Below are positions 128 through 38,232 of a DNA stretch of 64,000 bases, piece by piece. The first letter of the stretch is position 1, and each line of letters begins with the position of its first letter. The DNA lies in contig NZ_CP069812.1 in assembly GCF_016894385.1 (NCBI RefSeq), positions 1,922,001-1,986,000 on the forward strand. Direction: 5' to 3'. The notes under the pieces are model-generated. The model did not search any database. It saw only the letters and a list, made by a program, of their open reading frames with translations, and was not told the DNA's origin. The DNA comes from Cupriavidus oxalaticus. GTDB taxonomy: Bacteria > Pseudomonadota > Gammaproteobacteria > Burkholderiales > Burkholderiaceae. The position numbers were made by a program, and so were the translations under genes.

Positions 128-226
128 GACAGTAGTACTTGATGCACTAACTGAACGGCATTAACGCCTCAGCTGTACCCATCCTTGCTGCCGATTCGCC
201 CACGGGACCGATCGTGTCTCGCGCGG

Positions 227-240
227 TTGACGTCGATCAA
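227..240 (+). promoter_or_regulatory. FNR/ANR-type box upstream of phaB
   Basis: TTGAC-GTCG-ATCAA matches the FNR consensus TTGAT-N4-ATCAA at 9 of 10 positions. The box centre (233.5) lies about 41 bases upstream of a start point predicted from TATGTT at 262-267. This is class II FNR promoter geometry. An FNR protein with the matching recognition residues is encoded at 7719-8510. Confidence 0.65.
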
Positions 241-334
241 GGGCCAACCTGCACTCGCCGCTATGTTGGAAGCACGCAAGACCGCTTTGCGGCCGGACGC
301 ATATGTACGCAAGGGCAAGACAGGAGCTACGAGG

Positions 335-1084
335 ATGATGGACCACCAACGGATTGCCCTGGTAACGGGAGGTATGGGCGGCCTCGGCGAAGCGATTGCT
401 CAGAGGCTGCTGGCCGATGGCATGCGTGTCGTGGTAACACACTCGCTGCACAACGACCACGTAGCGCAGTGGCTGCAAGCGCAGCGCAACGCGGGTCGCC
501 TGTTCACGGCATTCCCGGTGGACGTGACCGATTTCGCGTCATGTCAGGACTGTGTCTCGCACGTGCGCAGCGAAGTGGGCGAAGTCGACATCCTGATCAA
601 CAACGCCGGCGTGACCCGGGACCGGACCTTGCGCAAGATGGACAAGGCCGACTGGGACTTTGTATTGCGCACAGACCTGGACTCGCTGTTTCATATGACG
701 CGCCCCCTGGTCGATCCCATGATCGCGCGCGGCTGGGGACGCATCGTCAATATCTCATCGGTCAATGCCTCCCGCGGCGCCTTTGGCCAGACCAACTATG
801 CAGCAGCCAAGGCCGGCGTGCATGGTTTCACCAAGGCGCTGGCGCTTGAACTGGCTCGCAAGGGCATCACCGTCAACACGGTTTCACCTGGCTACCTGGA
901 CACCCGGATGGTGACCGCCATGCCCGCGAAGGTCCTGGAGCGCGACGTGCTGCCTGCCATCCCGGTGGGCCGGCTTGGCAAGCCGGCGGAGGTCGCGGCG
1001 TTGATTTCTTACCTCTGCGGCGACGACGGCGCCTTTGTCACCGGCGCCAATTTTGCCATCAACGGCGGACAGCATCTGCAATGA
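335..1084 (+). CDS. phaB: Acetoacetyl-CoA reductase (PhaB family SDR)
   Basis: This 249-residue protein is a classical short-chain dehydrogenase that should reduce acetoacetyl-CoA to (R)-3-hydroxybutyryl-CoA with NADPH in the cytosol, supplying PHA synthase. Seen: the nucleotide-binding TGGMGGLG near the N-terminus, NNAG, the catalytic Ser in NISSVN and the YxxxK pair in NYAAAKAG. The C-terminal ITVNTVSPGY and GGQH segments are typical of PhaB. The start is set at 335 because AGGAG lies 8 bases upstream; an open frame continues back to 185 but has no ribosome site. The length agrees with the usual 246 residues of PhaB. The stop overlaps the phaC start as ATGA, so translation is probably coupled. 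No phaA thiolase is adjacent. Confidence 0.9.
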   Translation: MMDHQRIALVTGGMGGLGEAIAQRLLADGMRVVVTHSLHNDHVAQWLQAQRNAGRLFTAFPVDVTDFASCQDCVSHVRSEVGEVDILINNAGVTRDRTLRKMDKADWDFVLRTDLDSLFHMTRPLVDPMIARGWGRIVNISSVNASRGAFGQTNYAAAKAGVHGFTKALALELARKGITVNTVSPGYLDTRMVTAMPAKVLERDVLPAIPVGRLGKPAEVAALISYLCGDDGAFVTGANFAINGGQHLQ

Positions 1085-2850
1085 AACTCGATGACGGCAT
1101 AGCGCCCGCCAAGGGCCCGGCGATACCGGAGTGCGTGCCCCAGCAGGAACTCCCCGCCCATGTCTGGCTGGACAAGCAGTTTCGCGCGTGCCTGGCGCGC
1201 GCCACAGGCGGGCTGTCGGTGATCTCGGCGAGCATGGCGGGACTTGACTGGGCGCTGCAGTTGGGCATTTCGCCGGCAAAGCTCATGCAGGCGTGGCAGG
1301 TGTGGCTGCGCCAGAGCATCGAAGATTCGCCGCGGCTATTGCCCACGACATCCGAACCGCCGTCTGTCCCGCAGAGCGACCAACGCTTTGCCCACCCGGG
1401 CTGGCGGGACTGGCCCTATCGCTGTTGGCGCGATGCGTTCATGCGCAGCGAGGTCTTCTGGGAGACGCTGACACAGGATATCGATGGCCTGTCGCGCCAC
1501 CATCAGCACATCGTATCCTTCTGCGCGCGGCAATGGCTGGACCTGGCAGCGCCGGGCAATGCCTGGTGGATGAATCCCGAGGTGACCAGTGTCGCTTCAC
1601 GCACGCTCGGCAGCAATTTCTTGCGCGGCTTCCATCACTGGCTGGAGGATATCGGCGAGTGGCTGTCGGAGCTTCCCGCGAGTCCGCCGGCCCGCCCCGT
1701 TCTCGAGTACCTGCCAGGCCGGGACGTCGCGGTGACGCCGGGCAAGGTGGTGTTCCGCAACGCGCTCATCGAGCTGATCGAGTATGCGCCGCTCACCGAC
1801 ACCGTGTGGCGGGAGCCGGTGCTGATCGTGCCGTCCTGGATCATGCGGTACTACATTCTGGACCTGAAACCGGAGGACTCGCTGGTGCGCCACATGGTCG
1901 AGCGTGGCCACACAGTGTTCATGATCTCGTGGAAGAACCCGGACGCGTCCGCCCGCGATTTCGGGTTGAATACCTACCTGGAATCCGGGTTGTTCGCCGC
2001 GCTCGATGCCGTTCTCGCCCGTTGCGATGGTGCCCCGATCCACGCCGCCGGATATTGCCTTGGTGGCACGTTGCTTGCGACAGGCGCCGCAACGCTGGCG
2101 CGCGATGCCGGCGGCGGTCCCCTCGGCAGCCTGACCCTCTTTGCCGCCGAGACGGATTTCCATGACCCGGGCGAGCTGGGGCTGTTTATCGACAAGAGTT
2201 CGCTCGCTACGCTGGATGCCTTGATGTGGAGTCAGGGCTTTCTGGATGGGCCGCAGATGAAGTCCGCGTTCCAGATGCTCAACGCACGGGACCTGATCTG
2301 GTCGCGCGCAATGAGCGAATACCTGCTCGGCCAGCGGTTGCGCGCCAATGACCTGATCTCCTGGAACCGCGACGCCACGCGCTTGCCCTACCGGCTGCAT
2401 TCCGAATGTCTGCACAAACTGTTTCTTGGCAATGAACTGGCCACCGGCAAGCTGTGCGTGGGTGGCCGGCCCGTGGCGCTGTCGGATCTCGACCTGCCGC
2501 TGTTCGTGGTGGGTACGGAGCACGACCACGTCTCGCCCTGGCGCTCGGTATACAAGCTGCACTTGCTGACGCAGGCCGAACTTACCTTCCTGCTGACTTC
2601 GGGCGGCCACAATGCCGGCATTGTGTCGGAGCCAGGGCATCCGCGCCGGCGCTATCGCGTGCATACACGCCACGCTGGTACGCCTTACCTGAGTCCGGAC
2701 CAGTTCCTGTCCCGGTCCACGTACCACGAAGGTTCCTGGTGGCCCGCCTGGCAGCAATGGCTGGCGGCACGCTCGAGCGGGCGTTGCGTGCGTGAACCGT
2801 TGCCATCCGGGAGCCCGGAAGCGCCTGGCACGTATGTACTGGAAGCCTAG
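1081..2850 (+). CDS. phaC: Class I poly(3-hydroxyalkanoate) synthase
   Basis: This 589-residue PHA synthase polymerises (R)-3-hydroxyacyl-CoA on the granule surface. Seen: the PHA synthase N-terminal region (about 50-250) followed by an alpha/beta-hydrolase core. The lipase-like box GYCLGG places the nucleophile at Cys326, with the general-base Asp482 in TEHDHVSPW and His510 in SGGHNAG. Spacing and length are almost identical to the class I enzyme of Cupriavidus. The gene overlaps phaB by 4 bases. With the FNR-type box upstream of phaB, the pair looks like a second, oxygen-responsive PHB operon distinct from a main phaCAB locus. That regulatory reading is inference. Confidence 0.93.
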   Translation: MKLDDGIAPAKGPAIPECVPQQELPAHVWLDKQFRACLARATGGLSVISASMAGLDWALQLGISPAKLMQAWQVWLRQSIEDSPRLLPTTSEPPSVPQSDQRFAHPGWRDWPYRCWRDAFMRSEVFWETLTQDIDGLSRHHQHIVSFCARQWLDLAAPGNAWWMNPEVTSVASRTLGSNFLRGFHHWLEDIGEWLSELPASPPARPVLEYLPGRDVAVTPGKVVFRNALIELIEYAPLTDTVWREPVLIVPSWIMRYYILDLKPEDSLVRHMVERGHTVFMISWKNPDASARDFGLNTYLESGLFAALDAVLARCDGAPIHAAGYCLGGTLLATGAATLARDAGGGPLGSLTLFAAETDFHDPGELGLFIDKSSLATLDALMWSQGFLDGPQMKSAFQMLNARDLIWSRAMSEYLLGQRLRANDLISWNRDATRLPYRLHSECLHKLFLGNELATGKLCVGGRPVALSDLDLPLFVVGTEHDHVSPWRSVYKLHLLTQAELTFLLTSGGHNAGIVSEPGHPRRRYRVHTRHAGTPYLSPDQFLSRSTYHEGSWWPAWQQWLAARSSGRCVREPLPSGSPEAPGTYVLEA

Positions 2851-20555: not shown

Positions 20556-21223
20556 CCCCGCTCCAGGCCCGCCAGCTGCAGGACCGCTTCGCTGCCGTGT
20601 GGACGCGCGCGGGCGGCACGCATGCGGGCGACGCCTATGCCGATCTTGCCGGCCGCTATGGCGAGCCGGGCCGCCATTACCACACCCTCGACCATATCCG
20701 CCGCTGCCTGCGTGACCTGGATTGGGCTCGCGGCGCCATCGCCACGGCCGATGCCGATGCGGTGGAACTGGCGCTGTGGTGCCATGACGTGATCTTTGTA
20801 CCTGGCGCGGCCGACAACGAAGCCCGCAGCGCAGGCTGGATCCTGCAATGGGGGACCGGCATCGCCAGGGCCGACCGGATCGCCGCACTGGTGCTGGAAA
20901 CCGTCCACGACGGGATCCCTGCCAGCACAGCGGGCCGCTTCACCGCCGATATCGACCTGGCGGCGCTCGGCTGCAGCCGGACGCGCTTCCGTCATAACGG
21001 CGCCTGCCTGCGCGCCGAGCGCACCGACCTCGACGACCAGGCCTACGACGCAGCCGAGCGCGCCTTCCTGCGCGCGCTGCTGGACAGCCCGCGCATCTAC
21101 CATACCGAGCCGTTCCACGCGCGCTATGAAGCCCGCGCGCGCGCCAACCTGGCGTGGCGGCTGGCGCAGCCGGGCCTTGCTGGCGTCACAGGCGTCACAG
21201 GCGTCACAGGAACTCGCCGCTGA
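20552..21223 (+). CDS. Predicted metal-dependent HD phosphohydrolase
   Basis: A 223-residue HD-superfamily protein. The metal site is visible as HYHTLDH near residue 43 and WCHDVIF near 76, with a later Asp in TADIDLAALG. This is the COG4339 type; substrates are not established. The ATG overlaps the end of the restored cyclase-like gene (ATGA), so the two were probably one operon. Its C-terminus is a GVT repeat encoded by 9-base units, and its last 20 bases overlap the convergent patatin gene. Confidence 0.75.
   Translation: MTPLQARQLQDRFAAVWTRAGGTHAGDAYADLAGRYGEPGRHYHTLDHIRRCLRDLDWARGAIATADADAVELALWCHDVIFVPGAADNEARSAGWILQWGTGIARADRIAALVLETVHDGIPASTAGRFTADIDLAALGCSRTRFRHNGACLRAERTDLDDQAYDAAERAFLRALLDSPRIYHTEPFHARYEARARANLAWRLAQPGLAGVTGVTGVTGTRR
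21182..21211 (+). repeat. Three 9-bp tandem units at the convergent gene ends
   Basis: GGCGTCACA is repeated three times, in frame, at the 3' end of the HD gene and reaching into the patatin gene's last codons on the other strand. Confidence 0.8.
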
Positions 21224-22235
21224 TGTCGATGCTGGAGCGCTGGCCGATGCTGTCGTAGTGCTGCGCCAGCCAGTCCGTGGCCTGCGCCCTGCCCTGGTCG
21301 CGCAGCGCGCACAGGAAGCCCCAGTCGGCGTTGTACTTGGTCGACACGCCAAGCGCAGCCATGGTCTCGTCGGAGCGGATCGAGTGGATCCACATCTCCT
21401 TCATGTCGCGCCCGTCCACCTTGCCCTGCTGGATCAGCGCGGTGACAAAGGCAATGGCGCGCATCTCGCGCATCAGCGATGAGTTGAAGCTGAGCTCGTT
21501 GACGCGGTTGAGGATATCCGCCGCCGAGGTCGGCACGCCGTGGCGCACGATCGGGTTGATATGGACGATGACCACGTCGCGGGTCTGGCAGTGGTAGATC
21601 AGCGGAAAGATCGCCGGGTTGCCGACATAACCGCCGTCCCAGTAATACTGGCCATCGATGCACACCGCCTGGAACAGCGTGGGAACGCAGGCCGACGCCA
21701 GCACGGCATCGATGCTCAGCTCCTCCGGCGGGAAGATGCGAATGCGGCCGGTCTCGATATTGGTGGCGCACAGGTAGAGCCGGATCGGGCAATGCTCGCG
21801 CAGCGCGGCGAAGTCGACTTGCGTGCCGAGCACTTCGCGCAGCGGGTTCAGGTTGTTGGGATTGAACTGGTACGGCGACAGCAGGCGCAGCGCAATGTCG
21901 GCCATGGCATACAGCGGCGAATGGTTCAGCCCCAGGGTATGGCCGGTCTTGAACCACGGCATCCAGCGGAACGGGCTGTAGCGCTGCGCGGAGCTCGAGA
22001 TCGCCAGCCAGAACGCGTGCAAGGCCTCGCGCGCGCCCGCGCTGCCGCCTTGCAGCAGCCCGTAGGCCAGCACCGCGCCGTTCATGGCCCCGGCGCTGGT
22101 GGCGCTGACGCCCTCGATCGCCAGCCTGCCGTCCTCGAGCAGACGGTCGAGCACGCCCCAGGTGAATGCGCCGTGCATGCCGCCGCCCTGCAGGGCAAGC
22201 GACACGGGTTTGCGGTCTGGCTGGTCCGGCTGCAT
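21204..22235 (-). CDS. Patatin-like phospholipase
   Basis: A 343-residue patatin-family lipid acyl hydrolase. Seen: oxyanion loop GGGMHGAFTWG (about 18-28), nucleophile Ser in SATSAGAMNG and catalytic Asp in WDGGYVGNP. The usual G-x-S-x-G has Ala in place of the first Gly. Similar predicted esterases (RssA type) are common in Burkholderiales, and some act in PHB/lipid turnover or membrane repair. No signal peptide is evident. Its last 20 bases overlap the convergent HD gene. Confidence 0.87.
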   Translation of the reverse strand: MQPDQPDRKPVSLALQGGGMHGAFTWGVLDRLLEDGRLAIEGVSATSAGAMNGAVLAYGLLQGGSAGAREALHAFWLAISSSAQRYSPFRWMPWFKTGHTLGLNHSPLYAMADIALRLLSPYQFNPNNLNPLREVLGTQVDFAALREHCPIRLYLCATNIETGRIRIFPPEELSIDAVLASACVPTLFQAVCIDGQYYWDGGYVGNPAIFPLIYHCQTRDVVIVHINPIVRHGVPTSAADILNRVNELSFNSSLMREMRAIAFVTALIQQGKVDGRDMKEMWIHSIRSDETMAALGVSTKYNADWGFLCALRDQGRAQATDWLAQHYDSIGQRSSIDISGEFL

Positions 22236-35471: not shown

Positions 35472-36959
35472 TCAGGCGGATTGCGTTTCCGCCGCCTTGA
35501 GCTGGTTGACCAGCGCCACATAATCGCGCATGGCCTGCTCGCGCGGCAGGCCGCGCCGGGCGGCCCAGGCGTCGTACTTGGCACGCCCGACCATGTCCAT
35601 CATGCCCGGGCGGTCGCCGCTGACGTCGCCGGCGCTGCCTTGCTTGTAGAGCGCATAGAGCGACAGCAGGGTGTCGTTGTCGGGCGCCTGGCGCAGCGTC
35701 TTCGACAACGCCGCGGCGGCCTCGAAGGCCTGTTCGGCAGGACTTGGGCCCTGCAGCGCCGGCGTGCCGCCGAAGTGCGCATCTTCCAGCGCCACTTCGT
35801 CCGGGAACCACCGCCCCTCCAGCAGCTTGCCGTCGCGCAGCGCAAACGCCAGCACGCCCTGCGAGGCCAGCGTGCCGCTGCGCAAGGTCGCAGGCACCAC
35901 GGCCATGCCGGTGTTGAGCACCGGCGCGCCGAAAGCGGTGAACGCCAGCCCCGCATCCGCCCATTCGCGCAGCCGCGCCAGGCCACGGTCGCCACGGTAG
36001 ACCCCGCTGGTCCGGTTGGCGCCCGGCTGGAACCACGCAAAATCGCCCTTGCCGCGCGCATACAGCGCGGCCAGGTCCCCTTGTTCAAGGTCCGCGCGTG
36101 CCGCCGCCAGCAGCCCGGTCATCTGCTCCGGCGTCATGCGCGCATCGTCGCGCTCCGCACCCGCCATCCCAAGCGACGTGCCCACGCTGGCCTCGAAGAA
36201 TTCCAGCACGTTGCGCGCCACCAGCTCGCGGTCATTGTCGACGCAGACCATGTGGTAGCTGTCTTCCAGCACCAGCATGCGCGCCTGCCCGGCACGCTTG
36301 CCCTGCCCGATCTGCTCGACCAGGAAGTTGGCCGAGCGCAGGCTGGTCAGCTCGTCCAGCCGCGCGTGGACCACCAGCGTGGGGCAGGCAATGCGCTGCA
36401 GCCCCTTGCGCACATAGCCGCGCAAGCGGTCCACTTCGCGGATGCACGCCAGTGGCACCCACTGGTAGTGGAAGTTCTCGCCGCGCGCGAACTTGGCCTT
36501 GACGATCTCGCGCAGCTGCTCGTTCCTGATGCCGAACGGCTCTTCCTCTTCCACCTTCATCCGGTTGGGGACGCCAGGGATCCGGTACAGCAGCGGGCGC
36601 AGGCCGCGATACCACGGCGTGGCCCAGCCGTCGATATAGACCGGCGGCGCCAGCGCCACCAGCCGGCCCTTGGTGTGCTGCTCGCGCTTGACCGTCTCCA
36701 CCGCCAGCAGCGCGCCCATGCACATGCCCATCACGTGCAGCGTTTCATGCTGGTCGATGATCTCGCGGTATTTGGCGCGCACCGCTTCGAGCCAGTCCTC
36801 GGCGCGCACGCCGCACAGGTCTTCGGGCTGCGTGCCGTGCCCCGGCAGCGTCAGCGAGTGCGTGACGAAGCCGGCGCGCTTGAGCCGCTTGTGCATCGAG
36901 CCCAGGTCATACTGCGTGCCGCCCAGGCCATGGATCAGGAACACGCCGGGGTCAGGCAT
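35472..36959 (-). CDS. Alpha/beta hydrolase with Cys nucleophile, NTF2-like and acyl-CoA-binding domains
   Basis: A 495-residue three-part protein. Residues 1-260 are an alpha/beta hydrolase (VFLIHGLGGTQYDL) with the nucleophile elbow GMCMG, so Cys80 replaces the usual Ser; Asp202 (HARLDELTS) and His236 (DSYHMVCV) complete a triad. Residues about 275-400 look like an NTF2/SnoaL-type domain. Residues 408-489 are an acyl-CoA-binding protein domain with LLSLYALYKQ, GDRPGMMDMVGRAKYDAWA and EQAMRDYVALV. Cys nucleophiles in this fold occur in PHA synthases. This suggests an acyl-CoA acyltransferase, depolymerase or thioesterase; the substrate is unknown. Its start overlaps the MASE1-PAS gene by 8 bases. 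Confidence 0.87.
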   Translation of the reverse strand: MPDPGVFLIHGLGGTQYDLGSMHKRLKRAGFVTHSLTLPGHGTQPEDLCGVRAEDWLEAVRAKYREIIDQHETLHVMGMCMGALLAVETVKREQHTKGRLVALAPPVYIDGWATPWYRGLRPLLYRIPGVPNRMKVEEEEPFGIRNEQLREIVKAKFARGENFHYQWVPLACIREVDRLRGYVRKGLQRIACPTLVVHARLDELTSLRSANFLVEQIGQGKRAGQARMLVLEDSYHMVCVDNDRELVARNVLEFFEASVGTSLGMAGAERDDARMTPEQMTGLLAAARADLEQGDLAALYARGKGDFAWFQPGANRTSGVYRGDRGLARLREWADAGLAFTAFGAPVLNTGMAVVPATLRSGTLASQGVLAFALRDGKLLEGRWFPDEVALEDAHFGGTPALQGPSPAEQAFEAAAALSKTLRQAPDNDTLLSLYALYKQGSAGDVSGDRPGMMDMVGRAKYDAWAARRGLPREQAMRDYVALVNQLKAAETQSA

Positions 36960-38232
36960 GCGCGGGCTCCGCGCCGGCGCGGCGCAGCAGTGCCGCCACC
37001 TGCTCCACCTTGCCGTCCGCGCCGCGGATGCCGGCCAGCCGCTCATGCACGCGCAGCCGGCCGCTGCCCGGCAGCGTCACGGCGTATTCCTGCACGCTGT
37101 CGGGCGCATCGCCGCGCGCCACGGCAGACCAGGTGGCCTGCACCAGCCCGCGGTCGGTGGCGTCGATGCGGTCCAGCCATTCGTCGACACTGTTGACGTC
37201 GCGGATCGTGTCGCCGAGCAACGCCGCCGCGCCCTCGCTCCATGTAGCACGGCCGGTGACCGCGTCATACTCCACGCTGGCCACGCCCACCGCCTGCAGC
37301 GTGCGCGCATAGCGCAGGCGCCAGGCACGCGCTTCCTCCAGCGCGGTGCGGCGGCCCTCGGACAAGGCGCGGCCGAGCAGCATCACCAGCGCCCAGACAA
37401 TGACAAAGCCCTGCACCTCGACCACCGCCTCGCCCGGAAAGCCTTCGATGACGTTGAACGGTCCCGCGCCGGCCGCGGTGCGGTGGATGATCAGCAGGCA
37501 GCCCGCCAGCGTGGCGATGGCGCCGCCGCGCGGCCCCCACAGCAGCGCGGTGGCCAGCAGCAGCGGCATCGGCACGTACGCAAGCGTGGGCGCGAGGCCG
37601 CCGAAGCGCTGCGCGGCGTTGTCAGAAAACACCGCCAACACCGCCACGATAAAGACCACGAAGGCCAGCCCGCCGGCCGCGAACTGCTGCATCGGCATGC
37701 CGCCCGAGCGCCGCACGCGGAAGCCGCGGAATGCCACCGCCAGCGGCCCGACCAGCAGCAGCCCGGCCGCGGTGGAGAAGGCCCAGGCGCGCCATTCGAC
37801 CGGCAGGTCCAGGCCCGGCCGCTGCCAGCGCCACAGCTCGACCGCCAGCGAGGCGCCCAGCGCCGAGCCGGCCAGCGCCCCCGCGATCAGCAGCGTGGCG
37901 CCCGGCGGGCTTTGCGGGTCGCGGCGGCCATAGGTGGCGATCCAGCCGGCGGTGCCCAGGCTGATGACCTCGATCAGGCCGAAGGCGACCGCGCCGCGCA
38001 GCGGCAGGCCGTGCGTGGCCATGCCCCACCCCGCCAGGGCCAGCCCGGCGCCGGCCAGCACCGCCGGCCATGACCAGCGCGCACAGACCAGCAGCGCGGC
38101 AAAGGTGACGCCGCTGCCGAGCCAGACCGGCACCGCCTCGGTCGACGCCTGCGCCAGCGAGCGCGACACCACGCCGGCGGCAAGGACCAGCACGGCGACG
38201 ATGGCCGCCAGGCGTATCTGCTGCATTGGCAT
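36952..38232 (-). CDS. MASE1 membrane sensor with PAS domain
   Basis: A 426-residue protein with about 8-9 transmembrane helices forming a MASE1-type sensor (about 1-280), followed by a linker helix and a PAS domain (about 310-410: YARTLQAVGVASVEYDAVTGRATWSEG). No kinase, GGDEF, EAL or other output domain follows; it ends GAEPAHA. It therefore probably signals by protein contact or is a truncated relative of MASE1 kinases. It overlaps the hydrolase-ACBP gene by 8 bases, so both products are made together and may work together. Confidence 0.78.
   Translation of the reverse strand: MPMQQIRLAAIVAVLVLAAGVVSRSLAQASTEAVPVWLGSGVTFAALLVCARWSWPAVLAGAGLALAGWGMATHGLPLRGAVAFGLIEVISLGTAGWIATYGRRDPQSPPGATLLIAGALAGSALGASLAVELWRWQRPGLDLPVEWRAWAFSTAAGLLLVGPLAVAFRGFRVRRSGGMPMQQFAAGGLAFVVFIVAVLAVFSDNAAQRFGGLAPTLAYVPMPLLLATALLWGPRGGAIATLAGCLLIIHRTAAGAGPFNVIEGFPGEAVVEVQGFVIVWALVMLLGRALSEGRRTALEEARAWRLRYARTLQAVGVASVEYDAVTGRATWSEGAAALLGDTIRDVNSVDEWLDRIDATDRGLVQATWSAVARGDAPDSVQEYAVTLPGSGRLRVHERLAGIRGADGKVEQVAALLRRAGAEPAHA

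What the first reader, a model, noticed from the sequence alone, without database searches (positions are those of the whole stretch)
35472..36959. New domain arrangement: Cys-type alpha/beta hydrolase + NTF2-like + acyl-CoA-binding
The hydrolase elbow is G-M-C-M-G with a full Cys80-Asp202-His236 set, and the same chain carries an intact ACBP domain. The ACBP part could hand acyl-CoA to the Cys, as in PHA synthases. This suggests an undescribed acyl-CoA transferase, thioesterase or PHA-related enzyme.
Basis: partly seen in the sequence, partly recalled or inferred. Interest (0 to 1): 0.8.

Follow-up and report, generated by a model that had tools for sequence, protein, structure and literature searches.

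The report
Cysteine acyl-thioester hydrolase with membrane sensor
A bacterial enzyme that probably cuts or moves fatty-acyl groups carries its own acyl-CoA holder and, in most genomes examined, is encoded together with a membrane protein that looks like a sensor; I found no description of this pairing, and it could be a lipid-sensing switch.

Summary
The minus-strand ORF 36959..35472 (495 aa) has a GMCMG elbow with Cys80-Asp202-His236, an ACBP end and a middle that relatives identify as NTF2/SnoaL-like. Cys80 is the rule: 121 of 121 aligned homologues, query included, and 80 of 80 loci from named records.

The fusion is only half of the unit. A MASE1-PAS membrane protein with no output domain is encoded directly upstream in 76 of 80 loci, mostly overlapping the hydrolase start (57 of 83). 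NTF2 and ACBP come and go on the tree; Cys hydrolase plus MASE1-PAS is the constant. Of 25 more distant hydrolases, 16 sit beside an acyl carrier protein, with a ketoacyl synthase nearby.

Best reading: a Cys enzyme attacking acyl-phosphopantetheine thioesters, here fed by its own ACBP domain and coupled to a membrane PAS partner. Activity, substrate and PAS contact are inferred, not shown. A PHA role is possible but weakly supported. At the threshold used, the family was found only in the window's order. Closest precedents: RsbQ-RsbP and ACBP-enzyme fusions.

The parts
35472..36959 (-). Cys alpha/beta hydrolase - NTF2-like - ACBP fusion protein, 495 aa
36174..36959 (-). alpha/beta-hydrolase domain (aa 1-262); nearest solved relatives are monoacylglycerol lipase, LipS and Est30
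36720..36722 (-). codon of the putative nucleophile Cys80 (G-M-C-M-G)
36354..36356 (-). codon of Asp202
36252..36254 (-). codon of His236
35754..36152 (-). NTF2/SnoaL-like domain (about aa 270-402)
   Evidence: SnoaL_2 in relatives; weak 3g8z match
35508..35735 (-). acyl-CoA-binding (ACBP) domain, aa 409-484; ligand residues Y435, K439, K461, Y480
36952..38232 (-). MASE1-PAS membrane protein, 426 aa, no output domain; conserved upstream partner gene
   Evidence: Pfam; homologues; adjacency; length; model
37357..38211 (-). MASE1 transmembrane domain (aa 8-292)
   Evidence: E 3.9e-39
36973..37287 (-). PAS domain (aa 316-420)
36952..36959 (-). 8-base overlap of the MASE1-PAS stop and the hydrolase start (likely translational coupling)

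Best explanation
The gene encodes a cytoplasmic enzyme whose Cys80 attacks the thioester of an acyl-phosphopantetheine donor. In this clade the donor is probably an acyl-CoA held by the fused ACBP domain. The acyl group would pass to the Cys and then to water or an acceptor, making the protein an acyl-CoA thioesterase or acyltransferase. It works as a pair with the co-translated membrane protein MASE1-PAS, which would recruit or regulate it, or read its activity or product through the PAS domain. Shown by sequence: triad conservation, intact ACBP ligand residues, a conserved gene pair with mostly overlapping ends, lack of an output domain, and an acyl carrier protein gene beside distant relatives. 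Inferred: the thioester substrate, acyl transfer to Cys, cytoplasmic location, contact with PAS, and any sensing role.
For: Cys at the nucleophile place in 121/121, 80/80 and 27/28 and 21/24. ACBP ligand residues invariant in 121/121; K439, K461 and Y480 in 34/34 fused ACBPs outside Achromobacter, Y435 in 31/34. MASE1-PAS upstream on the same strand in 76/80 named loci, one of them (L083) a broken remnant, and in 20/20 of L034-L053. In an evenly drawn sample of 200 genomes of the order, 4 genomes have the close hydrolase (418 bits or more) and all 4 have a MASE1 match directly beside a hydrolase (in G065 beside a second, contig-cut copy); two of the 4 (G000, the window's own, and G042) had given rows to the models. 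The hydrolase ATG overlaps the MASE1 stop in 57 of 83 loci (-4 in 32, -8 in 14), and no MASE1 partner has more than 39 residues beyond the model end. ACP gene just downstream in 16 of 25 more distant loci; ACP and ketoacyl-synthase identities confirmed by Pfam in two loci.
Against: No activity is known to me for any member. The nearest solved relatives are ester hydrolases with Ser. ACBP is absent from many MASE1-paired hydrolases, and its lysine K461 is lost in 7 of 7 Achromobacter copies, so acyl-CoA delivery cannot be essential to the pair everywhere. 4 of 80 named loci lack MASE1. 4 of 25 distant loci have Ser instead of Cys: L062 and L161, L166, L168; two of these (L062, L166) also have the ACP and ketoacyl-synthase clusters, so the carrier link is not tied to Cys. 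9 of the 25 have no ACP just downstream by the profile. The ACBP and NTF2 parts of the fold model are of moderate or low confidence.
Confidence: 0.5

Rival explanations
1. RsbQ-type sensory module: the hydrolase makes or frees a small hydrophobic ligand, or itself touches the PAS domain, and the MASE1-PAS protein passes the signal to separate signalling proteins. The chemistry serves signalling only.
For: Adjacent hydrolase and PAS genes as in RsbQ-RsbP (PMC3183031, abstract and passages). PAS fold in the partner. MASE1 is the constant partner while ACBP is not. In L055 and L056 PAS-only genes lie upstream of hydrolase-only copies. In L073, which lacks MASE1, a PAS-GGDEF gene lies upstream on the other strand.
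Against: The partner has no kinase, cyclase or phosphatase domain. Gene order is reversed compared with RsbQ-RsbP. An ACBP domain with kept ligand residues suggests bulk acyl-CoA handling.
Confidence: 0.25
2. PHA-related enzyme: a PHA synthase-like, depolymerase or oligomer hydrolase acting on 3-hydroxyacyl-CoA or granules.
For: Cys-Asp-His triad and G-X-C-X-G elbow like PHA synthases (recalled). PhaC_N genes in 41 of 41 bearer genomes tested against 136 of 200 in the order. A PHA synthase lies in the same window at 1081-2850.
Against: No PhaC_N or depolymerase family hit at E <= 0.1. No pha gene came up among the neighbour clusters that I looked at, but that survey was partial. The 41/41 is confounded by taxonomy and genome size. 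I know of no PHA role of MASE1-PAS proteins.
Confidence: 0.12
3. Cys variant of a lysophospholipase or monoacylglycerol lipase that works in membrane lipid turnover with the neighbouring patatin phospholipase, the ACBP catching acyl-CoA made from freed fatty acids.
For: Nearest solved structures are lipases and esterases, among them monoacylglycerol lipases. A patatin-POTRA-barrel gene is near the unit in 39 of 82 MASE1-paired loci, in three arrangements (domains confirmed for one).
Against: The patatin is near only 5 of 39 full three-domain MASE1 loci and was not seen beside the window's gene. Catalytic Cys is unusual for ester lipases (general knowledge).
Confidence: 0.13

Closest known systems
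RsbQ-RsbP (alpha/beta hydrolase + PAS bipartite sensing module; PMC3183031, abstract and passages read)
   Same: alpha/beta hydrolase gene adjacent to a PAS-protein gene; two-gene unit seen in many species
   Different: Cys (not Ser, recalled for RsbQ) nucleophile; PAS tethered to MASE1 membrane domain; no output domain; hydrolase gene downstream rather than upstream; optional NTF2 and ACBP domains
Monoacylglycerol lipase / Est30 / LipS (Hydrolase_4)
   Same: hydrolase fold and positions of the triad
   Different: Cys instead of Ser; fused NTF2 and ACBP; MASE1-PAS partner
PHA synthase PhaC (recalled features; PF07167)
   Same: Cys-Asp-His triad in an alpha/beta hydrolase; acyl-CoA donor proposed
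   Different: no PhaC_N match; own ACBP; different neighbours
ACBD2/ECI2 (ACBP fused to an enoyl-CoA isomerase; PMC7057175, passages read)
   Same: acyl-CoA-binding domain fused to an enzyme, proposed to exchange acyl-CoA with it
   Different: eukaryotic; ACBP is N-terminal to a crotonase-type enzyme (recalled); no membrane partner gene
Hydrolase-ACP-ketoacyl synthase clusters in other genomes of the order (seen here: L060, L061, L146, L147, L149, L150, L152-L160, L167)
   Same: same hydrolase family, with Cys, beside a phosphopantetheine carrier
   Different: no MASE1, NTF2 or ACBP matched there; carrier is ACP rather than ACBP

Membership tests
ACBP (PF00887) | ACBP domain above the family cut-off | tested here: met
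   90.9 bits against cut-off 28.3
ACBP (PF00887) | Acyl-CoA ligand residues (Y28, K32, K54, Y73 type) | tested here: met
   Y435, K439, K461, Y480 invariant in 121/121, mapped by the alignment; residue roles as listed in PMC7057175 (passage)
Serine hydrolase of the monoacylglycerol lipase / Est30 type | Fold | tested here: met
   phmmer 3.6e-18 to 5xks; Foldseek 4fbl_A E 1.4e-14, TMt 0.84
Serine hydrolase of the monoacylglycerol lipase / Est30 type | Ser nucleophile in G-X-S-X-G | tested here: not met
   Cys in 121/121 and 80/80
PHA synthase (PhaC) | PhaC_N domain or equivalent family match | tested here: not met
   no hit at E <= 0.1 in Pfam or NCBIfam
PHA synthase (PhaC) | Cys-Asp-His triad in a G-X-C-X-G elbow | tested here: met
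PHA synthase (PhaC) | Polymerisation of 3-hydroxyacyl-CoA | not testable with these tools
   needs assay
RsbQ-PAS bipartite module | Hydrolase gene adjacent to a PAS gene | tested here: met
RsbQ-PAS bipartite module | PAS joined to phosphatase, kinase or cyclase output domain | tested here: not met
   no output domain in the partner; at most 39 residues beyond the model end in 83/83
RsbQ-PAS bipartite module | Hydrolase encoded immediately upstream of PAS | tested here: not met
   hydrolase is downstream of MASE1-PAS
NTF2/SnoaL-like domain | Match to a SnoaL/NTF2 family | tested here: inconclusive
   no Pfam hit in the window protein; SnoaL_2 over cut-off in 3 of 4 relatives scanned
MASE1 sensor proteins (PF05231) | MASE1 domain over the cut-off | tested here: met
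   135 bits against cut-off 29.8

The most novel reading that the evidence does not exclude
An undescribed membrane-linked acyl-thioester sensing system: an output-less MASE1-PAS receptor paired with a dedicated cysteine acyl-thioesterase, which in distant relatives is partnered by an acyl carrier protein and in this clade has taken up ACBP as carrier, so that the pair reports the acyl-CoA state of the cell.
Probability: 0.3. Interest if true: 0.82.

Novelty: new variant of a known kind. Interest (0 to 1): 0.62.

Why it matters
[quoted passage not shown] this is a bacterial one with a catalytic partner domain, seen in many genera of one order. The conserved pair gives an output-less MASE1-PAS protein a concrete candidate partner, and the ACP and ACBP partners make the substrate class (acyl-pantetheine thioesters) directly testable. 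If it senses acyl-CoA, it would be a regulator of lipid or storage metabolism in Betaproteobacteria, all 41 tested bearers of which encode a PHA synthase-like gene.

Tried and rejected
Member of the PHA synthase or depolymerase families: rejected as a family assignment. Ser in most orthologues: rejected. The local beta-oxidation neighbours (ECH, thiolase, SDR, IclR) as the functional partners: set aside, because among the 29 loci most or all of them are kept only in the five closest (L034, L035, L036, L053, L059), and apart from a thiolase relative in L044 none was found in the other 24. Fusion of MASE1-PAS and hydrolase in one chain: not seen among the 72 MASE1 homologues (length-limited search), whose listed Pfam domains are MASE1 and PAS only; in L083 remnants of both genes meet, but in different frames. 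VIA-align showed only PAS matches for the MASE1-PAS model, and the membrane part was barely tested; the Foldseek list was led by PAS chains too. The search for the R. eutropha granule proteins B1632 and A0225 (recalled from the literature, not seen) gave nothing relevant in the listings, so I could not check whether one of them is this protein. Literature searches for a bacterial ACBP-hydrolase fusion or a MASE1-hydrolase operon listed no paper that by title or abstract start describes one; of those lists I opened only PMC7057175 (passages). The library holds open-licence papers only. The viral fold library, metagenome collection and Rfam were not searched.

Full report
CHECK. The ORF at 36959..35472 (-) is 495 aa. 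Pfam gives an alpha/beta hydrolase (5-248) and ACBP (409-484, E 5.9e-26). The middle is NTF2/SnoaL-like by relatives: SnoaL_2 over the cut-off in 3 of 4 scanned, with a weak match to a cystatin-like fold in the query itself. The start codon is supported by homologue starts and by the overlap with the upstream gene.

CYSTEINE. In 121 aligned proteins (query plus the 120 listed of 703 homologues at E <= 1e-5) Cys80 and His236 are present in 121 and Asp202 in 120, with one gap. In 80 loci from named records (the best 80 of 145 relatives; some are metagenome-assembled) the elbow is GMCMG 62, GMCLG 17, AMCLG 1 (L139), with Asp and His in 80. In 28 further loci from the genus and order (L034-L062 without L059), 27 have Cys and 1 Ser; some of these are the same genes as named loci. 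In 26 more loci of the order, 24 have a hydrolase: 21 Cys, 3 Ser.

ACBP. Y435, K439, K461 and Y480 are invariant. Aligned to a solved ACBP they correspond to Y28, K32, K54 and Y73, which a review lists (numbered one higher) as acyl-CoA-binding residues (PMC7057175, passages). Among fused ACBPs of the fetched loci, 34 of 34 outside Achromobacter keep K439, K461 and Y480, and 31 of 34 keep Y435. In 7 of 7 Achromobacter copies K461 is Glu or Asp, and K439 is kept in only 1, while Y480 stays in 7; those copies keep the triad and the MASE1 neighbour. ACBP function is thus a lineage feature, not the core.

OTHER NEIGHBOURS. A patatin-POTRA-Omp85 protein (Pfam on one example, L135; the rest by BLAST clustering) is near 39 of 82 MASE1-paired loci, plus L140, which lacks MASE1. 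Of these 40, 33 are convergent downstream, 4 same-strand downstream, 3 upstream; one of the 33 (L136) is 3.3 kb away. It is rare near the full three-domain form (5 of 39 HNA_MASE loci, window left out) and was not seen beside the window gene. The window genome holds 9 patatin matches, one of them in the window at about 21.6-22.2 kb.

DISTANT RELATIVES. Of 25 more distant hydrolase loci (L060-L062, and L143-L168 without L162-L165; 21 Cys, 4 Ser), 16, all Cys, have an acyl carrier protein just downstream by the profile; 9 do not. BLAST clusters over 29 loci give a ketoacyl synthase in 18 and an ACP in 16. The 16 loci are all among the 18 with a ketoacyl synthase; the Ser loci L062 and L166 also belong to both clusters, so the carrier link is not tied to Cys. 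Pfam confirms ACP and ketoacyl synthase in L157 and L158, where the genes overlap or nearly touch. On a quick ML tree of 118 hydrolase domains (15 rows left out), the ACP group lies apart from the MASE1 clade: 99 SH-aLRT for the 96-row branch that holds the 83 MASE1 loci and 13 loci labelled as having neither partner. The partner label needs 8 changes, the ACBP label 7. Long branches meet near the base, so the order of events there is unsure and I claim no direction as shown. Some NTF2 domains were missed by the HMM: 5 of 32 loci labelled hydrolase-only with MASE1 have a 148-157 aa C-terminal extension.

DISTRIBUTION. At E <= 1e-65 the hydrolase model hits 1 of 321 class genomes (the window's own) and 4 of 349 phylum genomes (all in the same order). 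The samples are broad but thin, and weaker relatives elsewhere are not excluded.

MECHANISM. Conserved Cys triad, fused acyl-CoA carrier here, acyl carrier protein beside distant relatives: the common denominator is an acyl-phosphopantetheine thioester, which a Cys nucleophile can attack by thioester exchange (as known for PHA synthases; general knowledge). The conserved, probably co-translated MASE1-PAS protein points to membrane recruitment or signalling. For RsbQ-RsbP, contact of an alpha/beta hydrolase with a PAS domain has been reported (PMC3183031, abstract and passages). Here the PAS protein has no output, so either the hydrolase is the output, or the signal goes to another protein.

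PHA READING. PhaC_N is found in 41 of 41 bearer genomes that I picked and in 136 of 200 of the order. This is compatible with a link but confounded by kinship and genome size. The window has a PHA synthase gene about 33 kb away. No family-level relation was found.

NOVELTY. I found no report of the fusion or the gene pair (listings, open-licence library). Automatic names such as 'carboxylesterase' and 'acyl-CoA-binding protein' exist. I file it as a new variant of a known kind: hydrolase-PAS pair and acyl-CoA-binding enzyme fusion.

Noticed in passing
window 1081-2850 (+), with 185-1084 (+): PHA synthase gene (589 aa, GYCLGG elbow; PhaC_N hit at G000:C2:1923378) behind an SDR reductase that looks PhaB-like.
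   Followed up: partly
window 21204-22235 (-): Patatin-like protein, 343 aa.
   Followed up: no
L157:3965-6248; also L060, L061, L146, L147, L149, L150, L152-L156, L158-L160, L167: Cys hydrolase next to an acyl carrier protein, with a ketoacyl synthase in the locus, in other genomes of the order; product unknown.
   Followed up: partly
L055:7292-7804 and L056:7836-8345 (-): Small PAS-only proteins upstream of hydrolase-only copies; in L056 a CoA-transferase III and a TPP enzyme lie further upstream.
   Followed up: partly
L073:3456-4376 (-): A three-domain locus without MASE1 has a PAS-GGDEF gene upstream on the other strand.
   Followed up: no
L059 (G025): Decayed copy of the unit: MASE1 and the hydrolase domain are missing, NTF2 is truncated and ACBP is split over two frames, in otherwise conserved surroundings.
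   Followed up: no
L083:4650-6272 (Polaromonas sp. OV174): Remnants of MASE1 and of a hydrolase lacking its first 65 residues meet in different frames, with NTF2 and ACBP kept.
   Followed up: no
L090, L092-L095, L097, L098 (Achromobacter): Fused ACBP domains that have lost the ligand lysine K461 (7 of 7) and mostly K439 although triad and MASE1 partner are kept.
   Followed up: yes
L135:5802-8153 (-) and 46 other loci: Patatin-POTRA-Omp85 protein near the MASE1/hydrolase pair in three arrangements.
   Followed up: partly
G000:C2:2146367-2146648: A second, small stand-alone ACBP gene in the same genome (138 aa frame).
   Followed up: no
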